Source: Phaseolus vulgaris (lineage: Eukaryota > Streptophyta > Magnoliopsida > Fabales > Fabaceae). Taken from it: a stretch of DNA of 64,000 nucleotides. Shown here one piece after another: positions 2,922-64,000 of the stretch. The position numbers and the translations under genes are program-made. Positions within the stretch are counted from its first letter, which is position 1. Each line of letters starts with the position of its first letter. The stretch is from NCBI RefSeq assembly GCF_000499845.2, contig NC_023759.2, forward strand, positions 19,618,644 to 19,682,643, given 5' to 3'. The notes beneath the pieces are model-generated. The model did no database searches. It was given only the letters and a program-made list of their open reading frames with translations, and had not been told where the DNA came from.

Positions 2922-3809
2922 AGAGAGGATCAAGCCTAAAGCCAAAGAAGTCTACAAGCTTTCAAGAATGGGCTTCAATTAAATATCTCTCTTTATAGTT
3001 TCTTTTGTATAAAATTGTAAATAATATAGAATAGTGTTTAGGAAGGTGCTTAGAGGGAAACCTTAAGATACCTCTTTTGTAAAGCATCTTTAGGCTTTAG
3101 TTTAGAATTTTCTAGGAGGTGACTCTTCATAAGTCACTATAGGCGTTAGCTTAGGAGACTCTTGGGTAGCTTGTGGTACAAGCTTTGTAAAGCTCATGAC
3201 CGGCCCTTGCTCCTATAAAAGGAGGGCTTGGGTCCTTCTAAATGGAGAATTGGAATTTGTAGTATCAAAACTCTCCCAAATTGGCGATTGTATAGCCTTG
3301 GTTCCCTCAAGTGGCCGCAATTCACACTTATCTTGGAGCTTTCACACTTCAAGTGGCGTGTTCATCAACCAAGAACTACAACCACATAAGTCTTCTTTCT
3401 TCTCCATCTTCCCCTTCCATTTCCGTGCTTATATGAACTCCTAAACATGTCTTAGGTTCCTTTCTTGCTTTCTATTCGGTGTTCTAGCTTAGTTTCATGT
3501 TTCAATCGGTTCATCTTCTTTCTTCCTTGCTTTTGTTCGGTGCATTTCATTTGTGAAGCATTTCAATTGGTTCCTTTCATTTCTTAAGCAATTTAATCGG
3601 TTCATTTGCATTCTTGCACCTTTTAATCGGTTCAATTGACAAGAAATGGAACTTCCATATGAGATTTGGTGTTTGGTGCGAGTTTTGGTGAGTTCTTGAA
3701 ACATAGAACATTGATCCATTTCTATAAAAGTGCCTATTCAATCTCCAACTCAAGTTGATTCCATAAAATGTCAAAGAATAATCTATATCTTGCTATTGGA
3801 ATCATATCA
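2810..3809 (+). repeat. T1 3' LTR
   Basis: This 1000-bp LTR begins TGATGA right after a purine-rich stretch (CGAGGAGTA) and ends ATCATATCA. Its boundaries come from alignment with the paired LTRs of T2 (reverse complement). A TATAAAAG box lies at 3214-3221. The first 112 bp carry the end of the gag frame. Confidence 0.85.
3214..3221 (+). promoter_or_regulatory. TATA box of T1 LTR
   Basis: TATAAAAG sits at the place in the LTR where the T2 LTRs carry TATAAATA, about 400 bp from the LTR start. It probably drives element transcription. Confidence 0.6.
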
Positions 3810-3813
3810 CGTC

Positions 3814-4313
3814 TCCAGGATGCGGAGGGCAAAGGAACTGGCCAACAAAGAAGTCCTCCAATCCACTGAGCTCAAACGCTGAGTAACCGGACTTACCCTG
3901 GAGGTGGAGGAGCTTCGAAAGACTGACCGAGAGACCAAGGCCCTCTTGTTTGAGAAATCCCAAGAGGCCTTGAGATTGTACTCCAGGAACAACGACCTTC
4001 GCACTGAGGTGGACTGGCTGAAAAGGGAGCTAGCCAGCAAAGACGAGGAGATGGCTTTGCAGAAGGAGGTGTTGGTTAAACTGAAGGAGGAGTTGGCCCA
4101 CAAGGATGAACTCTTCCAACAGACCAAAGATGAGCTCACTAGTGATTCCGCTGATTCCTATGTGGCAGGCTTTGAGGATTCCATGGCTCAGGTTGCCTAC
4201 GTGCATCCTGAGGTGGATCTTTCTCAAACAGGTTTAAACAAAAACTATTGCAGATGGGCAGTTGGTGGATGGAGAACAACGATGACCCTTCCCCCTATTG
4301 CCTTTATTTTGTA
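3814..4313 (+). pseudogene. Element B antisense ORF, 3' part
   Basis: This encodes a long charged coiled coil (heptad-like K/E/L-rich, 3904-4140) followed by a conserved tail AGFEDSMAQVAYVHPEVDLS. The same tail type ends the antisense ORFs of A (AAREQFACLFPDLDL) and C (EALAQAVCMNPGIE). It runs opposite to B pol, as expected for this ORF in Tat elements. The N-terminal Transposase_28-like part is missing because T1 cuts the ORF at 3810. Cellular function is unknown. Confidence 0.75.
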
Positions 4314-16715: not shown

Positions 16716-16732
16716 GCCCCACGGTGGGCGCC
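16716..16732 (-). other. Primer-binding site of element A (tRNA-Lys)
   Basis: The plus strand carries GCCCCACGGTGGGCGCC, the 3' end of tRNA-Lys(CUU) plus CC. The match ends beyond this, so it is an ordinary PBS, three bases from the 5' LTR. Confidence 0.85.
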
Positions 16733-24262: not shown

Positions 24263-24360
24263 TTAGTCTTCTTTCCCATATTGTAGCTCAAAAAGTTGAT
24301 TCTGTACAGTTTCAATTTGCTCATCCAGGTTCAGGAAACGTGCATCCATACCCTGGAATC
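24263..24360 (-). pseudogene. Element D downstream ORF, C-terminal coiled coil
   Basis: 32 codons reading FDERFQGMDARFLNLDEQIE, then a Q/L-rich heptad stretch, ending at TAA (24265-24263). It lies between pol and the 3' LTR, where SIRE-like elements carry an extra (env-like) ORF. Truncated at 24360. Function unknown. Confidence 0.4.
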
Positions 24361-24900
24361 TCTCATCAAATCTCTATGTTCAGACAAGGAGCAGAGGATT
24401 TTTTTTGTGAGACATGGGAAAGATTCAAGATGATATTGAGAAAATGCCCAACTCATGAGTTTGAAGACATTGCTCAATTGAGCATATTCATTAATGGTCT
24501 CAAATCTGATATGAAGATGCTCTGAGATGCTGTAGCTGGTGGAACAATGATGACTCTTGATGCAAAACAAGCAATGAGGATTATTAAAGCATTGACATCA
24601 GCGGATTCTCAAGACCAGTATGATGGACGAAGTACTCAGAAGAAAGGATGGAGGGAAGATACACTATTGGCTCAAAATCAAATTTTGACACAGCAGATTG
24701 AGCAGTTAACCACACAAATGGCGAAATTGCCTCAACAATTGCATGCTACTCAAAGTCAAAATCAAGAATTAAGGTGCAAACTGCATGGAGGTGAGCATTC
24801 CAGTGAGCAATGTGCTTACCAAAATATTTCTTCTGAAAAAAAGTGTTTTACATGGAAGATCAAGGAAAGTAAGGAACTTTTCAACAACTCCAACTATTAG
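24361..24900 (+). pseudogene. Athila-like gag, 5'-truncated
   Basis: It starts inside the capsid domain (ISMFRQGAEDFF, ETWERFKMILRKCP), has a TGA in the former MLRDA stretch at about 24523, continues with AKQAMRIIKAL, a Gln-rich coiled coil and a half knuckle (CKLHGGEHSSEQC). Confidence 0.75.
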
Positions 24901-38573: not shown

Positions 38574-39581
38574 TGATGTGATTCCAATAGCCACATAGAA
38601 CAAGATTCTTGACACTTTGAGGAATCACCTTGAGCTGGAAAATATAGAGGCACTTTCTTAGAAGTTGGATCATGGTTCTAAAATCAAGAACTCACCAATA
38701 ACAAGTACCAAATCCCAAACTCATTTGGATGAACCAAATATTGTCAAATTGAATCAACAAAGGAAAATAAAAAGAATAGACCGAACAGAATTGAATTAAA
38801 AACAAAAGTACCGAACAGAAATAAGCAACAAACAGAAAATAGGTGCTGGAAAAATAGAGGAACCGAAACAACAACAACTCAAAACTCAAGGCAACATGAA
38901 CAAATTGAAGAAGAAGAAAGGAAGGAGAAGAGAATGCTCATGAAGATGGAAGATAGGTTGGATGATCACGCCACTAGAAGTATGGATGCTCCTAGATGAG
39001 TGTGCAAGCCGCCACTTGAGGAAACCATGGTCCTTCAAGATAAGACTAGAGTAGAAGCTCAAAAGCTCTCCAAATGCTCACTCCAATTTTGAGTATAGTT
39101 TCTTTAGATGAATTCAAATCTCAATTTTACAAAGGAAGCACCTCTATTTATAGCCTAAGGTGCTGAAAAATAGGTGGGAAATTTCAAATAAACTCATTTG
39201 AAATTCCCACCAAAAACAAGTCACATGGGAGGTGTGACCTTTTTCTACTATGACACCTCCCAAAAACTACACCTACACCACTCTCCTAAGTCACATGGAC
39301 AATGTGACTTTATTTTACATTTTCACACACCTTTATTTAATAACCAAACCTCCTAAAACTATACAAGAGTATTTCAAAGCTTGGCCTTGCCCCTCATGGG
39401 ATGGACTTGGGCTCTTTGGGCTTTGGCCTTCTTGGGCTTGGGCTTGGGCTTTGGGCTTGGGCCTCATCTTTATTTTATTTCTTCTTTTAATTTTGAGAAG
39501 ACTAGAAGGAAGAACTTCAAATGTGAGGGTGGATGTCCTCTTCCTCCATTAATAAAAGCCTCCTTTATTTGATTCTCATCA
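38574..39581 (-). repeat. T2 3' LTR
   Basis: 1008 bp. Holds the last 112 nt of the gag frame (39581-39470) and a TATAAATA box at 39145-39152 (minus). Confidence 0.95.
39145..39152 (-). promoter_or_regulatory. TATA box in T2 3' LTR
   Basis: TATAAATA on minus, repeated in the 5' LTR at 42817-42824. Confidence 0.65.
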
Positions 39582-42245: not shown

Positions 42246-43253
42246 TGATGTGATTCCAATAGCCACATAGAACAAGATTCTTGACACTTTGAGGAATCAC
42301 CTTGAGCTGGAAAATATAGAGGCACTTTCTTAGAAGTTGGATCATGGTTCTAAAATCAAGAACTCACCAATAACAAGTACCAAATCCCAAACTCATTTAG
42401 ATGAACCAAATATTGTCAAATTGAATCAACAAAGGAAAATAAAAAGAATAGACCGAACAGAATTGAATTAAAAACAAAAGTACCGAACAGAAATAAGCAA
42501 CAAACAGAAAATAGGTGCTGGAAAAATAGAGGAACCGAAACAACAACAACTCAAAACTCAAGGCAACATGAACAAATTGAAGAAGAAGAAAGGAAGGAGA
42601 AGAGAATGCTCATGAAGATGGAAGATAGGTTGGATGATCACGCCACTAGAAGTATGGATGCTCCTAGATGAGTGTGCAAGCCGCCACTTGAGGAAACCAT
42701 GGTCCTTCAAGATAAGACTAGAGTAGAAGCTCAAAAGCTCTCCAAATGCTCACTCCAATTTTGAGTATAGTTTCTTTAGATGAATTCAAATCTCAATTTT
42801 ACAAAGGAAGCACCTCTATTTATAGCCTAAGGTGCTGAAAAATAGGTGGGAAATTTCAAATAAACTCATTTGAAATTCCCACCAAAAACAAGTCACATGG
42901 GAGGTGTGACCTTTTTCTACTATGACACCTCCCAAAAACTACACCTACACCACTCTCCTAAGTCACATGGACAATGTGACTTTATTTTACATTTTCACAC
43001 ACCTTTATTTAATAACCAAACCTCCTAAAACTATACAAGAGTATTTCAAAGCTTGGCCTTGCCCCTCATGGGATGGACTTGGGCTCTTTGTGCTTTGGCC
43101 TTCTTGGGCTTGGGCTTGGGCTTTGGGCTTGGGCCTCATCTTTATTTTATTTCTTCTTTTAATTTTGAGAAGACTAGAAGGAAGAACTTCAAATGTGAGG
43201 GTGGATGTCCTCTTCCTCCATTAATAAAAGCCTCCTTTATTTGATTCTCATCA
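42246..43253 (-). repeat. T2 5' LTR
   Basis: 1008 bp, pair of 38574-39581. TATAAATA at 42817-42824 (minus) is the likely active promoter. Confidence 0.95.
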
Positions 43254-51350: not shown

Positions 51351-52536
51351 TGTACCGCCCCGTATTCGGGCGTTGACAAAGTCAAGGTCAAAGTCAACAC
51401 AAGGCGTCGCCTAGGTGGAGAGACGCCAAGTACCCGCGTCGCCAGGAGGAAGCGTCGCCAAGGCAAGGCGTCGCCTAGATGAAGGCGTCGCCCAACCAGG
51501 GCGTCGCCAAGATCAAAAATCACTAAGACAAGGCAATCACAGTGCGGTTCCCCGATACCCATGGGTAGGAAAGACCATGGAGGGAGCGACGCCGTGGGTA
51601 GGCCTCAGGTCCCGATAATCCGGGGTAGTGATAAAGAGAAGAGAAAGGTGGCTTCAAGGCCATAGTGATAGCACCAGTGTAGGGCAGCCTGACTCGTGAA
51701 ATACCCCTGCCGCCCCAGAGACGCCTTTGGGACAGATACGGCTCAAGAGGAGGGTCTCGCCCAGGGTAGCCAGGTGCAGGGTACGAGAGGAAGGCAGATA
51801 CGCTCTCTAAGTGAGTTACTAGATGATTGGGGGCATGAGTTGGCACCCAAAAAGTCACCCCTTGCGCAGTAGCACTCCCAAGCAGGAGGACTCACACGTA
51901 GAAACGTCCCCAGATGGGGTCATGGCGCTGTGAGGCCCTCCACGTGTACGACAGCCAGGTCAGAATAGAAACACCATTTAGTCAGGTACCAGGTAATTAA
52001 AGTCATTTAATACAGTTTCTGTTTCGAGCGTTTAAGGTACTATAAAGGCTCCCAAGCGTTTCAACGTCTTAAATGCGCTACGTTTTCTAATTAGACGCGT
52101 TAATTAAGTGCGTTACGTTTTATGATTAAAAGCGCTTTAAGGCGCTTTAAATGCTTGGGTAGTTTAAATAGCGCCGAGAATGTTGGGAACGGGGTTCGAA
52201 GTTTTTGGCAAATTTTCCAGAAACTCTCTAGTTGCTTGCTCGAGCCTTGAGGTTACGAACAAGGGACTGGGGAACGATCTTTGCCGGGACGAGAAAATAC
52301 ACACTAGAAACAGTTTCCTTTTTACCACCTTCAGAGTGCCATACGCGGTGCTCCGATACGGAGGTGCATAGTTTTTGGTGTTTCTTGCTGGCTAACTTGA
52401 GCGTCGGAGTGCAAACGGCCGCTAGGGCGCCCTTTTGTCCTTCTTTGCAGGAATCCACAGGTAATCAGTGGGAAGGAGTCCCTAGCTGACGGTTGAGGTT
52501 GCGCACGAAGACGTCGCAGGTCAACCGGACGGAACA
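51351..52536 (+). repeat. Element C 5' LTR
   Basis: 1186 bp, TGTACCGCCCCG to GACGGAACA. It carries six GCGTCGCC octamers (51404, 51436, 51452, 51468, 51485, 51501) and TATAAAGG at 52041-52048. Confidence 0.9.
52041..52048 (+). promoter_or_regulatory. TATA box of element C 5' LTR
   Basis: TATAAAGG, repeated at 63539-63546 in the 3' LTR. Confidence 0.65.
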
Positions 52537-52538
52537 TT

Positions 52539-52556
52539 TGGCGCCCACCGTGGGGC
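52539..52556 (+). other. Element C primer-binding site (tRNA-Lys)
   Basis: TGGCGCCCACCGTGGGGC is complementary to the CCA-containing 3' end of tRNA-Lys(CUU), two bases after the LTR. The complementarity does not stop here (see the tRNA-like feature). Confidence 0.9.
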
Positions 52557-52614
52557 TCGAACCCACGACCACAAGGTTAAGAGCCTTGTGCTCTACCAAC
52601 TGAGCATGACGGGA
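52542..52614 (-). tRNA. Retro-copied tRNA-Lys(CUU) sequence (not a functional gene)
   Basis: All 73 nt of a tRNA-Lys body can be read on minus. Acceptor TCCCGTC/GGTGGGC (first pair mismatched), D-stem GCTC/GAGC, anticodon arm CAAGG-CTCTTAA-CCTTG with anticodon CTT, T-stem GTGGG/CCCAC with TTCGAGC loop, discriminator G, then CCA encoded in DNA. Against the plant tRNA-Lys(CUU) sequence as I remember it there are about four changes. Encoded CCA and position at the PBS indicate a copy of the mature primer tRNA made during reverse transcription. Confidence 0.85.
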
Positions 52615-53303
52615 AGGAAGAAACCAGAGGGGAGACGCCCCTACGAAGCCAGAAAGTCCCAGCCCCGGGGTCCAGGGGGAGGTGATCGCCCGGTCAGAGA
52701 AAGAACGAGGCCGGCGAGATACAATTTTGTGGTGGAACTGAAGGACCTGATCGCCGTGCCTAATATAGCTAAGAGATTGAGGCGACCGGCGAAGTCTGAT
52801 AAGGTGTTGGGGCCTCGGAAAGACTCTTGGTGTGATTTCCACGAGGCTTTCGGTCACCACATTGATAACTGCCTGTCGCTGGGTTACCAGCTGGATGAGC
52901 TGGTGAGAACCGGGTTTCTGAAGGATTATGTCGCGGAACCCGCAACAACCGCCACCTTGCCGCCGCCAGCGGAAGAACAAGCACACGAGACGCCGGTTCT
53001 CGGCGAGGTCCATACAATAGCTGGAGGATTTTCCGGCGGAGGACCCACCGCCTCCCAGCGAAAGAAATACGCGATGGGGGTCAACTCGATCGAAGAAAGG
53101 ATCTCGGGTGAGCCGTGGGAGTCGGACCTCGTATTCACGAGAGGGGATCTCCGAGACGTGGTGCCGCACGACAATGACCCCGTGGTCATTTCGGTTGTCA
53201 CAACTGGAAGAAAGGTGCACAAAGTTCTTGTCGACCAGGGAAGTTCAGCAGACGTCATGTTCTGGTCGACATTCAATAAGTTACGGTTATCCCCGACCTT
53301 TTG
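52606..53303 (+). pseudogene. Element C truncated gag and start of protease
   Basis: An open frame from ATG 52606, which lies inside the tRNA-like copy. The N-terminal two thirds of Gag are absent. What remains: basic linker (KPEGRRPYEARK), FVVELKDLIAVPNI, the variant knuckle WCDFHEAFGHHIDNC (CX2HX4HX4C), LGYQLDELV with the Gln that is amber in A, then PHDNDPVVIS and VLVDQGSSADVMF of the protease. A frameshift at about 53295-53303 ends it. Confidence 0.82.
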
Positions 53304-55260
53304 AGGCCCTACACAAGGTGCCTGTATGGGTTTGCGGACAACCAGGGGGAAGTCCGAGGCTACCTGGAGATGAGGACTACGTTCACGGATGGAGAGGCCT
53401 CGCGTACCGAAAGCATCCGGTACTTGGTCGTGAACGCCAGCTCCGCTTACAATATCTTGTTGGGCAGGCCGGCGTTGAACCGGCTGAACGCAGTAGCCTC
53501 CACACGCCATATGAAGATGAAGCTGCCAGACCTAAGTGGCTAGGTGATAGTCATCAAGTCAGACCAGGAGGAGGCAAGGAAATGCTATGAGAACAGCCTG
53601 AAAACGAAGAGAGGCGTGTTCATGGTGTATGAGCGTCCGCCGAGTGCAGACACGACGATGATTGAGGCGACGCCCGCTGGGTCGACGCCTAACGAGGCCG
53701 TACCCGCAAGGGCGATGCCCGAAACAGATGCACCCATGGAAGAAGGTCCTGACGACGCGGCGCCCGTGGAAGAGGCGGCGCACGTCGAGGATGGTAGCAG
53801 GGAACAACCGGCGGCTAACGCCGTGGAGAGGGAGATTGGCGGCAAAACGTTTAAGTTAGGAAGTTTGTTGAGCCCAGAAGAACAGGAAGGGGTGGCATAA
53901 GTGATTTCACGCCACTTGGATGCTTTCGCATGGTCCGCCTCGGATATGCCCGGCAACGACCCTGATTTCCTGTGTTATCACCTCAGCATGGACGCCACGG
54001 TCCGCCTCGTGCGCCAAAGAAGGAGAAAGTTTAACGAAGAGAGGCAGCAGGTGGTAAAGGATGAAACGCAGAAGCTGTTGAGTGCTGGCCACATCAGGGA
54101 GATTCAATACCCTGAGTGGCTAGCCAACGTCGTCTTGGTGAAGAAGGCGAATGGGAAGTGGAGGATGTGTGTGGACTTCACGGACTTGAATAAGGCGTGC
54201 CCGAAGGACTCGTACCCACTACCCAGCATCGACGCGTTGGTGGATAGTGCGTCCGGCAGCAATGTGCTGAGCTTCGTGGATGCATTCTCGGGGTACAACC
54301 AAATCAAGATGCACCCGAGAGATGAGAGTAAAACTGCATTCATGACGGAGACTTGCAGTTACTGTTATAAGGTGATGCCTTTTGGGCTGAAAAACGCAGG
54401 CGCCACATACCAAAGGCTAATGGACAAGGTCCTAGTGCCCATGCTAGGGAGGAATGTGTACGCCTACGTGGATGACATGGTGGTGGCGTCGCAGGATAGG
54501 GCACAGCACATGGCAGACCTGGAGGAGTTATTCGTCACAATATCCAAGTACCGCCTCAAGCTAAACCCTGAAAAGTGCGTCTTCGGGGTAGAGGCCGGTA
54601 AGTTCTTCGGTTTTATGCTAACAGAGAGGGGGATAGAAGCGAACCCCGACAAATGCGCAGCGATTATCGCCATGCGAAGCCCGACGTCGGTAAAGGAAGT
54701 GCAGCAGCTGACAGGGCGGATGGCGGCACTCTCAAGGTTTGTTTCCGCCGGGGGAGAGAAGGGACACCCATATTTCCAGTGCCTCAAGAGAAATAGTCGT
54801 TTTGCATGGACTGACGAATGCGAAGCGGCTTTCATTAAGTTAAAAGAGTACCTGGCGACGCCACCGGTCCTCTGCAAACCAGTAACAGGTGTTCCCCTCC
54901 GGCTGTATTTCACGGTAACGGAGCGGGCTATCAGCTCTGTGTTAGTCCAGGAGCAGGACCAGAGTCAAAAGCCCATCTATTTTGTGAGCAAGGCATTACA
55001 AGGCGCTGAGACGAGATACTAGGCGCTGGAGAAGGCAGCGTTAGCAGTGGTGTTTTCAGCCAGGAGGCTCCGTCATTACTTCCACAGCTTTACGGTGGTA
55101 GTGATGACAAACCTCCCTATACAGGAAGTGCTGCAGAAGCCTGACGTGGCGGGAAGAATGGTGCGCTGGGCAGTGGAGCTGTCAGAATTCGACATTCAGT
55201 ATGAGCCTAGAGGTGTACGCAGATTTTATAGCGGAACTCTCGCCCGAAGGTGAGCAAGAG
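53301..55260 (+). pseudogene. Element C protease C-terminus, RT and first RNase H
   Basis: One frame with three stops: TAG 53541-53543, TAA 53898-53900, TAG 55020-55022 (QALEKAAL with Gln changed). Contains NASSAYNILLGRPALNRL, FVDAFSGYNQIKMHP, AYVDDMVVAS, TGRMAALSRFVSAGG and the RNase H with YFTVTERAISSVL, again lacking the usual first Asp. Near 55211 a short deletion fuses EPRG to VYADF and shifts the frame. Confidence 0.88.
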
Positions 55261-55790
55261 GTGGAGGTGGGCTCGCAGTGATTGCTCTCGGTTGATGGCT
55301 TTTCCAACCAACAAGGGAGCGGTGCGGGAATAGTCTTGGAGGGACCCAACGGCGTACTGATTTAGCAAGCTCTGCGCTTCGCCTTTAAGGCAAGTAATAA
55401 TCAAGCGGAATACGAAGCTCTGATCGCAGGATTGCTCCTGGCCAAGGAGATGGGCGCACAGAACCTCCTGGTGAAAAGCGATTCCCAGCTGATTACTGGG
55501 CAGGTGTCGGGTGAGTTCCAGGCGAAGGACCCACAGATGGCGGCGTATCTAAAATACGTCCAGTTATTGAAGGGAGCATTCAACGCTTTTGAGCTGGTAC
55601 ATGTCCCAAGGGAGCAGAATGCCAGAGCTGACCTGCTTGCCAAGCTGGCCAGCTCAGGCAAGAGGGGTAGGCAAAGGACAGTGATCCAAGAGACGCTCAA
55701 GGCTCCGCGTAATTTGTGGAAGATAACAGGGTGGATGTCTTCCAGACTTATACAACAAGAGGAAGGTTAAGGACTCATCGCTCTTTGAAA
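55261..55790 (+). pseudogene. Element C archaeal-type RNase H
   Basis: LSVDGF, GSGAGIVLEGPNGV, a stop before QALRF, NNQAEYEALIAG, KSDSQLITGQ and NARADLLAKLAS. Catalytic Asp/Glu positions are kept but the frame is broken. Confidence 0.82.
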
Positions 55791-57094
55791 ATGCCCCGTA
55801 TCAGCACGTACGCGGATATGCCTGAAGAAGGAAGGCAAATGTATGTGTCCTAGCCGAGGGAGACACCTGGATGACGCCATACAAACAGTACCTGGCGGAT
55901 GGGGCTCTCCCAGTGGAGCCGGAAGAGGGTAAGAAGGTCAAGAGAAATGCCGCAAGATATACTCTGGTGGACGGAGTGTTGTTCAGGCATGGTTTCACTC
56001 ACCCTATCCTAACGTGTGTAAGTGGCGACGAGTGTACTAGGATAATGGCGGAGCTCCACGAAGGCATTTGCGGGAGCCACGTAGGGGGAAGGTCCTTAGC
56101 CTCCAAGGTGATACGCGCAGAGTTCTTCTGGCCAACAGTAAAAGAGGACTGCACGCGACACGCCCAGCGCTGCAGGCAATGCCAAAAGCACGCTGACTGG
56201 CACAAGGCGCCGCCAGAAGAACTGCGATCCATATATAGTCCGTGGCCTTTTCATACCTGGGGAATCGACATCCTGGGTCCGTTCCCACTGGCGATAAGGC
56301 AGATGAAGTATTTGATCGTTGCCATCGAGTACTTCACCAAGTGGATAGAGGCAGAGCCCGTGGCACAGATCACTGCGCACAAGGTACAGCAGTTTGTGTG
56401 GAAGAACATTGTGTGTCGCTTTGGCGTACCTAGGCGCTTGATATCCAATAATGGGACCCAGTTTGCCAGTCAGCAGTTGAGAAATCTGTGCGCTGAGGTA
56501 GGTATCAAGCAAGTGTTCGCATCAGTCGAACACCCCCAGACCAACGGGCAAGTGGAATCAGCAAACAGAGTCCTGCTGAGGGGGTTAAAAAGGAGGTTAG
56601 AGAAGGCCAAAGGGGCGTGGGCGGAGGAAGTACCAAGGATCGTATGGGCATACCACACCACGCCCCAATCTTCTACCATGGAGACGCCTTTCAGTTTGGT
56701 GTATGGGTCGAATGCGATGATCCCCGTAGAAATACATGAAAGCTCGCCACGCTTTCAAAACTTTGTGTTTGAAGAATCCAACGAAGAAAGGCGGGTAAAC
56801 CTGGATCTACTGGACGAAGCCAGGGAGGAAGCCAGAATAAAAGCCCAAGCGGTAAAGAGGAGAGTAGAGCGGCAATATAGCTCTAAGGTAAAGCCACGAC
56901 AGTTTCAGATTGGCGACCTAGTGATGAGGAAAGCCCACCCATACGAGCTGGAGAATAAGCTGTCTCCCAAGTGGACCGGACCCTTCAGGGTTACCGAGGC
57001 TAAGGGCAACGGCTCGTACTACCTAGAGACCTTGGAAGGGGGTCCCATCCCGCGCAGTTGGAATGCAGCCAACCTAAAGTTTTATTTTAGTTGA
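55791..57094 (+). pseudogene. Element C integrase
   Basis: 407 codons open from 55871. Zinc region HEGICGSH...CRQCQKH; core WGIDILGPFPLA, ISNNGTQFAS (Asn where A has Asp, i.e. the second DDE residue is lost) and HPQTNGQVESANR; C-terminus MRKAHPYELENKLSPKWTGPF and ending NLKFYFS. The intact length hides an inactivating D-to-N change. Confidence 0.85.
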
Positions 57095-62835: not shown

Positions 62836-62850
62836 AGACTGGGGGGCTTG
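62836..62850 (+). other. Polypurine tract of element C
   Basis: AAGACTGGGGGGCTTG-type tract directly before the 3' LTR start TGTACCG; same as in A. Confidence 0.85.
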
Positions 62851-64000
62851 TGTACCGTCCCGTATCCGGGCGTTGACAAAGTCAAGGTCAAAGTCAATGC
62901 CATGAGTCAAAGTCAACACAAGGCGTCGCCTAGGTGAAAGACGCCAAGAGGAAGCGTTGCCAAGGCGAGGCGTTGCCTAGGTGAAGGCGTCGCCCAACAG
63001 GGCGTCGCCAAGATCAAATATCATTAGGGCAAGGCAATCACAGTGCGGTTCCCCGATACCATGGGTAGGAAAGACCATGGAGGGAGCCACGCCGTGGGAA
63101 GGCCTCAGGTCCCGATAATCCGGGGTAGTGATAAAGAGAAGAAAAAGGTGGCTTCAAAGCCATAGTGATAGCACCAGTGTAGGGCAGCCTGACTCGTGAA
63201 GTACCCCTGCCGCCCCAGAGACGCCTTTGGGACAGATACGACTCAAGGGAGGGTCACGCCCAGGGTAGCCAGGTGCAGGGTACGAGAGGAAGGCAGATAG
63301 CTCTCAAAGTGAGTGACTAGATGATTGGGGGCATGAGTTGGCACCCAAAAAGTCACCCCTTGCGCAGTAGCACTCCCAAGCAGGAGGACTCACACGTAGA
63401 AACGTCCCCAGGTGGGGTCATGGCGCTGGTGAGGCCCTCCACGTGTACGACAGCCAGGTCAGAATAGAAACACCATTTAATCAGGTACCAGGTAATTAAG
63501 TCATTTAATACAGTTTCTGTTTCGAGCGTTTAAGGTACTATAAAGGCTCCCAAGCGTTTCAACGTCTTAAATGCGCTACGTTTCTAATTATACGCGTTAA
63601 TTAAGTGCCTTACGTTTTATGATTAAAAGCGCTTTAAGGCGCTTTAAATGCTTGGGTAGTTTAAATAGCGTCGAGAATGTTGGGAACGGGGTTCGAACTT
63701 TTGGCAAATTTTCCAGAAACTCTCTAGTTGCTTGCTCGAGCCTTGAGGTTACGGACAAGGGACTGGGGAAAGATCTTTGCCAGAACGAGAAAATACACAC
63801 TAGAAATAGTTTCCTTTTTACCACCTTCAGAGTGCCATACCGGTGCTTCGATACGGAGGTGCATAGTTTTTGGTGTTTCTTGCTGGCTGACTTGAGCGTC
63901 GGAGTGCAAACGGCCGCTAGGCGCCCTTTTGTCCTTCTTTGCAGGAATCCACAAGTAATCAGTGGGAAGGAGTCCCTAGCTGACGGTTGAGGTTGCGCAC
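62851..64000 (+). repeat. Element C 3' LTR, cut by window edge
   Basis: 1150 bp visible, matching 51351-52506 with small indels. TATAAAGG at 63539-63546. Confidence 0.9.

What the first reader, a model, noticed from the sequence alone, without database searches (positions are those of the whole stretch)
52539..52620. Whole mature tRNA-Lys copied into a retrotransposon at its primer-binding site
Normally about 18 nt of the primer tRNA are copied, because reverse transcriptase stops at a modified base. Here all 73 nt of tRNA-Lys(CUU) plus CCA are present as antisense directly after the 5' LTR, with full cloverleaf pairing. The homology ends at the tRNA 5' end and the next bases are mid-gag sequence. 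The simplest history: plus-strand strong-stop synthesis ran through the tRNA to its 5' end, and the product was joined to internal cDNA, deleting two thirds of gag. Element A in the same window has the ordinary short PBS, so this is not the family's standard form.
Basis: partly seen in the sequence, partly recalled or inferred. Interest (0 to 1): 0.85.

Follow-up and report, generated by a model that had tools for sequence, protein, structure and literature searches.

The report
Primer tRNA copied into bean retrotransposons
In common bean, a retrotransposon has copied most of the cellular tRNA that primes its replication into its own DNA, and several other elements in the same genome carry shorter scars of the same kind, which look like a fossil record of reverse transcriptase overrunning its primer and then jumping to the wrong place.

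Summary
In a Phaseolus vulgaris Tat (Ty3/gypsy) element, 52539-52605 is an antisense copy (66/67) of tRNA-Lys(CUU)+CCA, nt 76 to nt 10. About 1.3 kb (leader and 78% of gag) is missing relative to element A.

It is not unique. A pattern search of the genome gave 14 extended-PBS sites, 11 loci after merging three segmental duplicates, ending at tRNA nt 10, 16, 28, 29, 30, 33, 37, 45, 47, 48 and 52, against 5,205 exact 17-nt PBS sites. Nine of the 11 exceed chance. The nine joins I could name are not to a normal leader.

Best reading: plus-strand strong-stop DNA overran the m1A58 stop into the tRNA and was rescued by illegitimate transfer. Both copies that include nt 26 are changed there, while 19 of 20 gene matches have G26: possibly miscopied m2,2G26, though the site is a CpG.

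The mechanism is known from retroviruses; my ten literature searches found no natural genomic series.

The parts
51351..52536 (+). 5' LTR of element B (TGTACCGCCC ... GGAACA)
   Evidence: 93.9% match to 62851-64000; ends read
52537..52538 (+). 2-base spacer TT between LTR and PBS
   Evidence: sequence
52539..52556 (+). ordinary 18-nt primer-binding site (tRNA nt 76-59)
   Evidence: sequence
52539..52605 (-). tRNA-Lys(CUU)+CCA copy, nt 76 to nt 10; one difference, at nt 26
   Evidence: 66/67 against host gene plus CCA
52606..53304 (+). gag remnant running into protease; first bases ATGACGGG are gag
   Evidence: three DNA relatives, protein relatives, frame
52608..52613 (+). GACGGG, shared by gag and the complement of tRNA nt 7-2; completes the apparent cloverleaf
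53901..55022 (+). reverse transcriptase and start of RNase H
   Evidence: RVT_1 3e-34, RT_RNaseH_2
55432..55770 (+). additional RNase H (Tat-clade mark)
   Evidence: RVT_3 1.3e-11
55871..57094 (+). integrase
   Evidence: rve, Integrase_H2C2
62837..62850 (+). polypurine tract region GACTGGGGGGCTTG
   Evidence: sequence; same motif before A's 3' LTR
62851..64000 (+). 3' LTR of element B, cut by the window end
   Evidence: sequence past the window reads N
16716..16732 (-). short PBS of element A (GGCGCCCACCGTGGGGC), for comparison

Best explanation
Element B is a deletion derivative made by one aberrant round of reverse transcription. Normally tRNA-Lys(CUU) primes minus-strand DNA, and plus-strand strong-stop DNA copies U3-R-U5 and then the 3' 18 nt of the still attached tRNA, stopping at m1A58. 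In B the stop failed and copying went on at least to tRNA nt 10. The overlong 3' end was not usable for normal transfer to the PBS complement; it was transferred to minus-strand cDNA inside gag, where there is an imperfect match (CAA-TGAG-C--GACGGG), and extended from there, losing the leader and 78% of gag. The sequence, its length, its source and the loss are shown; the order of steps is inferred. The same failure left at least eight other scars of different length in this genome.
For: (1) 66/67 match to host tRNA-Lys(CUU)+CCA, antisense, at the PBS. (2) The next base is gag, with about 1.3 kb missing relative to element A. (3) A graded series of 11 loci, nine of them far beyond chance. (4) The nine continuations I could name are not a normal leader: gag (window), protease region (C10:20.10), RT gene (C3), 3' region equivalent to window 58236 and 58425 (C8, C2), 214 bases before a PPT (C10:32.52) and 47 before one (C4), middle of an LTR (C10:8.78), inverted U3 tip (C11). 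(5) C11 looks like integrated strong-stop DNA: LTR 3322-4252 of L183, tRNA copy to nt 29, then CCTGGGCGGTAC, the inverted tip of the same LTR, CCT shared, and (T)ACTTT on both sides: there the tRNA-ended plus strand acted as primer. (6) nt 26 is changed in 2 of 2 copies that include it; 19 of 20 tRNA-Lys(CUU) gene matches examined have G26; probability 0.004 if the 6 changed CpG cytosines of 90 fell at random. Arabidopsis nuclear tRNAs show the m1A58 and widespread m2,2G26 signatures (PMC11658184, passages). (7) With unmodified tRNA, plus-strand synthesis reaches the tRNA 5' end, and only products stopped in the T loop serve as templates (PMC13191261, passages).
Against: nt 26 lies in a CpG, so both changes could be decay of methyl-C, and only two copies reach it. 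nt 58 is changed in only 1 of 11. The acceptor match in gag is not outstanding (7 sites in 10.2 kb score as high). Two loci, C4 and C10:20.10, have extensions expected 0.32 and 0.66 times by chance. The acceptor of C5 and C1 is not identified. For C10:8.78 and C10:20.10 no LTR before the PBS was confirmed, and for C4 only short matches. In C8 the LTR part starts near the TATA box after internal sequence, so loss of gag and pol is not shown there and an insertion as in C3 is possible. No biochemistry was available.
Confidence: 0.85

Rival explanations
1. DNA-level capture: a tRNA gene, or free tRNA cDNA, was joined to the element by recombination or break repair, not by primer overrun.
For: About 20 tRNA-Lys(CUU) gene matches exist; C3 and C8 lie inside internal sequence.
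Against: The copy is always in register with the PBS and carries CCA complement or the element's own base, no gene flank appears, end points are graded inside the tRNA, and the two copies that include nt 26 differ from 19 of 20 gene matches there.
Confidence: 0.06
2. A long PBS is a standard, selected feature of a subfamily, giving extra pairing with the primer.
For: Several LTR families are affected; lentiviruses and spumaviruses have a short primer over-extension sequence (PMC13191261, passages).
Against: 14 sites against 5,205 exact 17-nt sites; lengths differ at every locus; the nine named continuations are not a leader.
Confidence: 0.03
3. Variant of the best explanation: copying reached the tRNA 5' end (nt 1-2) and the end paired with gag through GACGGG; the mismatched TA was later replaced by gag's AT.
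For: 15 of 17 similar bases between the tRNA 5'-part copy and the gag acceptor.
Against: 117 of 10,204 windows score as high; a switch at nt 10 needs no extra change.
Confidence: 0.35
4. The nt 26 change in two copies is CpG decay, not miscopying of m2,2G26; the overrun model stands but the modified-base signature does not.
For: CpG context; in the 11 copies all other differences except nt 76 and nt 58 are C>T or G>A.
Against: Only 4 of 71 CpG sites changed to TG or CA between B's LTRs; 2 of 2 at one site has probability 0.004.
Confidence: 0.35

Closest known systems
Large deletions by errors in strand transfer in retroviral vectors (Pulsinelli and Temin 1991; seen only as a reference-list entry in PMC9278108; not held; content recalled)
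   Same: Recalled: deletions that start at the PBS because plus-strand strong-stop DNA ended wrongly and was transferred to internal sequence.
   Different: Cultured vector against germ-line copies in a plant; here most of the tRNA is retained and lengths form a series.
Overrun of primer tRNA by HIV-1 RT when A58 is unmodified (product P1; TRMT6-mutant cells; PMC13191261, passages)
   Same: Plus-strand synthesis past A58, up to the tRNA 5' end; such products are said not to be usable templates.
   Different: Intermediates there; integrated end products with an illegitimate join here.
Large internal deletions after tRNA-primed reverse transcription of HIV-1 RNA in vitro (PMC10986323, abstract and passages)
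   Same: Strand transfer to random positions gives cDNAs with large internal deletions.
   Different: Concerns the first (minus) transfer in vitro; the passages I saw mention no tRNA sequence at the joins.
Tat-clade plant elements, PBS survey (PMC6317226, passages)
   Same: tRNA-Lys PBS among others, additional RNase H.
   Different: The passages shown describe matches of at least 12 bp to tRNA 3' ends; none mentions copies with most of a tRNA.

Membership tests
Tat clade of Ty3/gypsy LTR retrotransposons | gypsy order RT, RNase H, integrase | tested here: met
   Pfam matches in B and in one 1418-aa ORF of A
Tat clade of Ty3/gypsy LTR retrotransposons | additional RNase H domain (PMC6317226, passages) | tested here: met
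   RVT_3 between RNase H and integrase in A and B
Tat clade of Ty3/gypsy LTR retrotransposons | subclade (Retand, Ogre, TatI-III) | not tested
   no RT tree was built
Strand-transfer-error deletion derivative | LTR and PBS followed at once by internal sequence, leader missing | tested here: met
   window:
Strand-transfer-error deletion derivative | primer tRNA sequence past the PBS at the join | tested here: met
Strand-transfer-error deletion derivative | formed within a single replication cycle | not testable with these tools
   needs cDNA intermediates
Nuclear tRNA gene | whole tRNA in genomic flank, no encoded CCA | tested here: not met
   CCA complement present, tRNA sequence stops at nt 10, gag follows

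The most novel reading that the evidence does not exclude
[quoted passage not shown] The length of each scar and its miscopied bases (nt 26, nt 58) report the modification state of the tRNA that primed that insertion, so old insertions can be read as records of tRNA modification in the ancestral germ line; in one case (C11) a tRNA-ended strong-stop DNA was itself integrated.
Probability: 0.45. Interest if true: 0.8.

Novelty: new variant of a known kind. Interest (0 to 1): 0.66.

Why it matters
The m1A58 stop of plus-strand synthesis is known from retroviruses (PMC13191261, passages). A series of natural end products lets one ask, in any assembled plant genome, how often the stop fails, what becomes of the failed product, and whether miscopied bases reveal tRNA modifications at the time of insertion. 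It also gives a simple route to internally deleted, non-autonomous elements. Of 5,205 exact 17-nt PBS sites, 10 have the long extension (7 independent, two of them weak); the other 4 of the 14 sites have a mismatch within the 17 nt. This counts only products that integrated and survived.

Tried and rejected
Full-length copy to tRNA nt 1: not supported as visible sequence, because gag relatives carry the last bases. ARAGORN's complete tRNA is explained by the shared GACGGG.

Descendants by retrotransposition: none seen. Searches found three other copies of the exact junction; all share about 310 bp of 5' flank. One search scored only 40 of 156 candidates.

Source gene with A26: one degenerate match (L145), which differs elsewhere from the copy; 19 of the 20 tRNA-Lys(CUU) gene matches examined have G26. 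Matches without a locus were not examined.

My first reading of C8 (gag and pol deleted) was dropped: one search showed that its LTR part starts near the TATA box behind internal sequence, so it may be an insertion as in C3.

A single-event model for the several LTRs at C10:32.52 Mb (overlong end re-primed before the PPT, then a normal transfer) was considered; the LTR before the scar is chimeric or nested, so it is left open.

Other collections: one unrelated match for the PBS pattern in viral contigs, no relative of the RT, none for a tRNA-Lys pattern.

Not completed: counts of extensions of 20 nt or more with the PBS, and the same question for the primers tRNA-iMet and tRNA-Asp, because the genome search did not complete. 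Shorter read-through is undercounted, since needed 28 nt with at most 3 mismatches.

Literature: searches listed no paper that I recognised as reporting such copies in a genome; most subscription papers are not held. I judged from listings and opened ten papers for passages; of PMC11658184 I also read one section.

Full report
What is there. The window is G000:C1:19618644-19682643, in an assembly of 537.7 Mb and 467 contigs. Named protein hits are Phaseolus vulgaris, and one lies on a contig of the same length as C1 (51,433,939), so I take it to be common bean. The finding lies in element B, with LTRs at 51351-52536 and from 62851 to beyond the window. It has RT, RNase H, an additional RNase H and integrase, the mark of the Tat clade (PMC6317226, passages). 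Its LTRs differ by K2P 0.035, about 1.3 million years at a rate of 1.3e-8 that I recall.

The tRNA copy. After the LTR and TT comes the complement of tRNA-Lys(CUU) with CCA. ARAGORN reports a tRNA-Lys at 52543-52613, Rfam only model positions 10-63. Against the gene sequence of this genome the copy matches 66 of 67 bases from nt 76 to nt 10. The next bases, ATGACGGGAAGG, are gag: family proteins read VNETTTGRKKPEGRRPYEARK, one has M at the same place (P0022), and 3 of 3 DNA relatives fetched read GTCAATGAGACCATGACGGGAAGG. So the copy ends at nt 10, and the GACGGG that completes the cloverleaf is gag. Element A's gag has 393 residues from its first Met; the part equivalent to B begins after 307 of them.

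It is a series. A 28-base pattern (tRNA nt 75-48) with up to 3 mismatches matched 34 places, its reversed control none. Fourteen begin with the GG of the CCA complement; the other 20 are tRNA genes or gene-like. Of the 14, four are the window's junction and three copies with the same 5' flank, 23 and 58 kb away on C1 and on contig C113: segmental duplicates, or one locus placed twice. Eleven loci remain. Their last tRNA nt are 10 (window), 16 (C10:32.52 Mb), 28 (C3:17.79), 29 (C11:50.88), 30 (C1:18.34), 33 (C5:5.61), 37 (C10:8.78), 45 (C8:25.80), 47 (C2:18.96), 48 (C10:20.10), 52 (C4:4.87). The 17-nt PBS occurs 5,205 times exactly. Among so many sites, extensions like those of C4 and C10:20.10 are expected 0.32 and 0.66 times by chance, so these two are weak; the other nine have expectations of 3e-4 or less.

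What the scars join to. Window: gag. C2: a whole LTR (84% to B's), itself inserted in RT sequence of another element, then sequence equivalent to window 58425, so gag and pol are absent between. C8: LTR sequence 92% like B's but only from near the TATA box on, behind internal sequence, then the equivalent of window 58236; deletion or insertion cannot be told. C3: inside an otherwise collinear RT gene, 55 bases of U5 end, PBS and tRNA stand in place of 5, with AGGCAGG shared on the left and TT on the right. C10:20.10: protease region of pol. C10:32.52: 214 bases before a PPT; C4: 47 bases before one, followed by an LTR with a normal PBS. C10:8.78: middle of an LTR of C5's family (80-84%). C11: LTR, tRNA to nt 29, then the inverted LTR tip CCTGGGCGGTAC with CCT shared, and (T)ACTTT on both sides. 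C5 and C1: not identified. None of the nine named joins is to a normal leader. An LTR before the PBS was confirmed by a second or family LTR for the window, C10:32.52, C11, C1, C5 and C2, and in part for C8; not for C10:8.78 and C10:20.10, and only by short matches for C4.

How it works. Plus-strand strong-stop DNA copies the LTR and then the tRNA still attached to the minus strand. In HIV-1 it stops at m1A58; with unmodified tRNA it runs to the tRNA 5' end, and only the products stopped in the T loop serve as templates (PMC13191261, passages). The bean copies fit survivors of such a failure: an overlong end that primed elsewhere. C11 shows it most directly, since there the tRNA-ended plus strand primed on a plus-strand U3 tip. 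The window's acceptor in gag resembles the copy of the tRNA 5' part, but 117 of 10,204 windows of the element score as high. All steps are inferred from end products.

Trace of a modified template. Apart from nt 76 the 11 copies show 13 differences: 12 are C>T or G>A, as methyl-C decay gives, and one is T>A at nt 58 (C1). Both copies that include nt 26 have T there; 19 of the 20 tRNA-Lys(CUU) gene matches examined have G26, the exception being degenerate. If the six changed CpG cytosines fell at random among 90, both nt 26 cells would be among them with probability 0.004 (its second figure used 11 changes where 12 is right). G26 is the m2,2G site at which RT miscopies (S. pombe, PMC4697793, passages; Arabidopsis, PMC11658184, passages). 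Against this: nt 26 is a CpG, n is 2, and nt 58 is changed in only 1 of 11. nt 76 differs in 4 of 11; two of these share element A's base, so this is at least partly inherited.

Limits. The genome search answered 3 of 48 requests, so other primers and shorter extensions were not counted. No other plant genome could be searched. The end of B's 3' LTR and its TSD are not available, since the sequence past the window reads N.

Noticed in passing
G000 C11:50.88 Mb (L183, about 3322-4310 in PBS orientation): A solo LTR ending in a tRNA copy to nt 29 and a 12-nt inverted U3 tip, with (T)ACTTT on both sides: apparently an integrated plus-strand strong-stop DNA.
   Followed up: partly
G000 C10:32.52 Mb (L181) and C4:4.87 Mb (L189): Scar followed by PPT and an LTR that carries a normal PBS (in L181 also gag and pol); the LTR before the scar in L181 is chimeric or nested.
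   Followed up: partly
window 16733 (element A) and loci L146, L149, L158, L160: The PBS base opposite tRNA A76 is not T (A, A, A, G, C), so some families may be primed by tRNA ending in CC.
   Followed up: no
window 24358-24461, minus strand: Match to plant snoRNA snoR71 just below the Rfam gathering score (37.4 against 40 bits).
   Followed up: no
G000 C1:19.67-19.73 Mb and C113: Element B with its 5' flank occurs three more times in inverted orientation or on an unplaced contig: segmental duplication or one locus placed twice.
   Followed up: partly
window 38574-39581 and 42246-43253: 1008-bp direct repeat, 99.8% identical, probably the LTRs of a young element.
   Followed up: no
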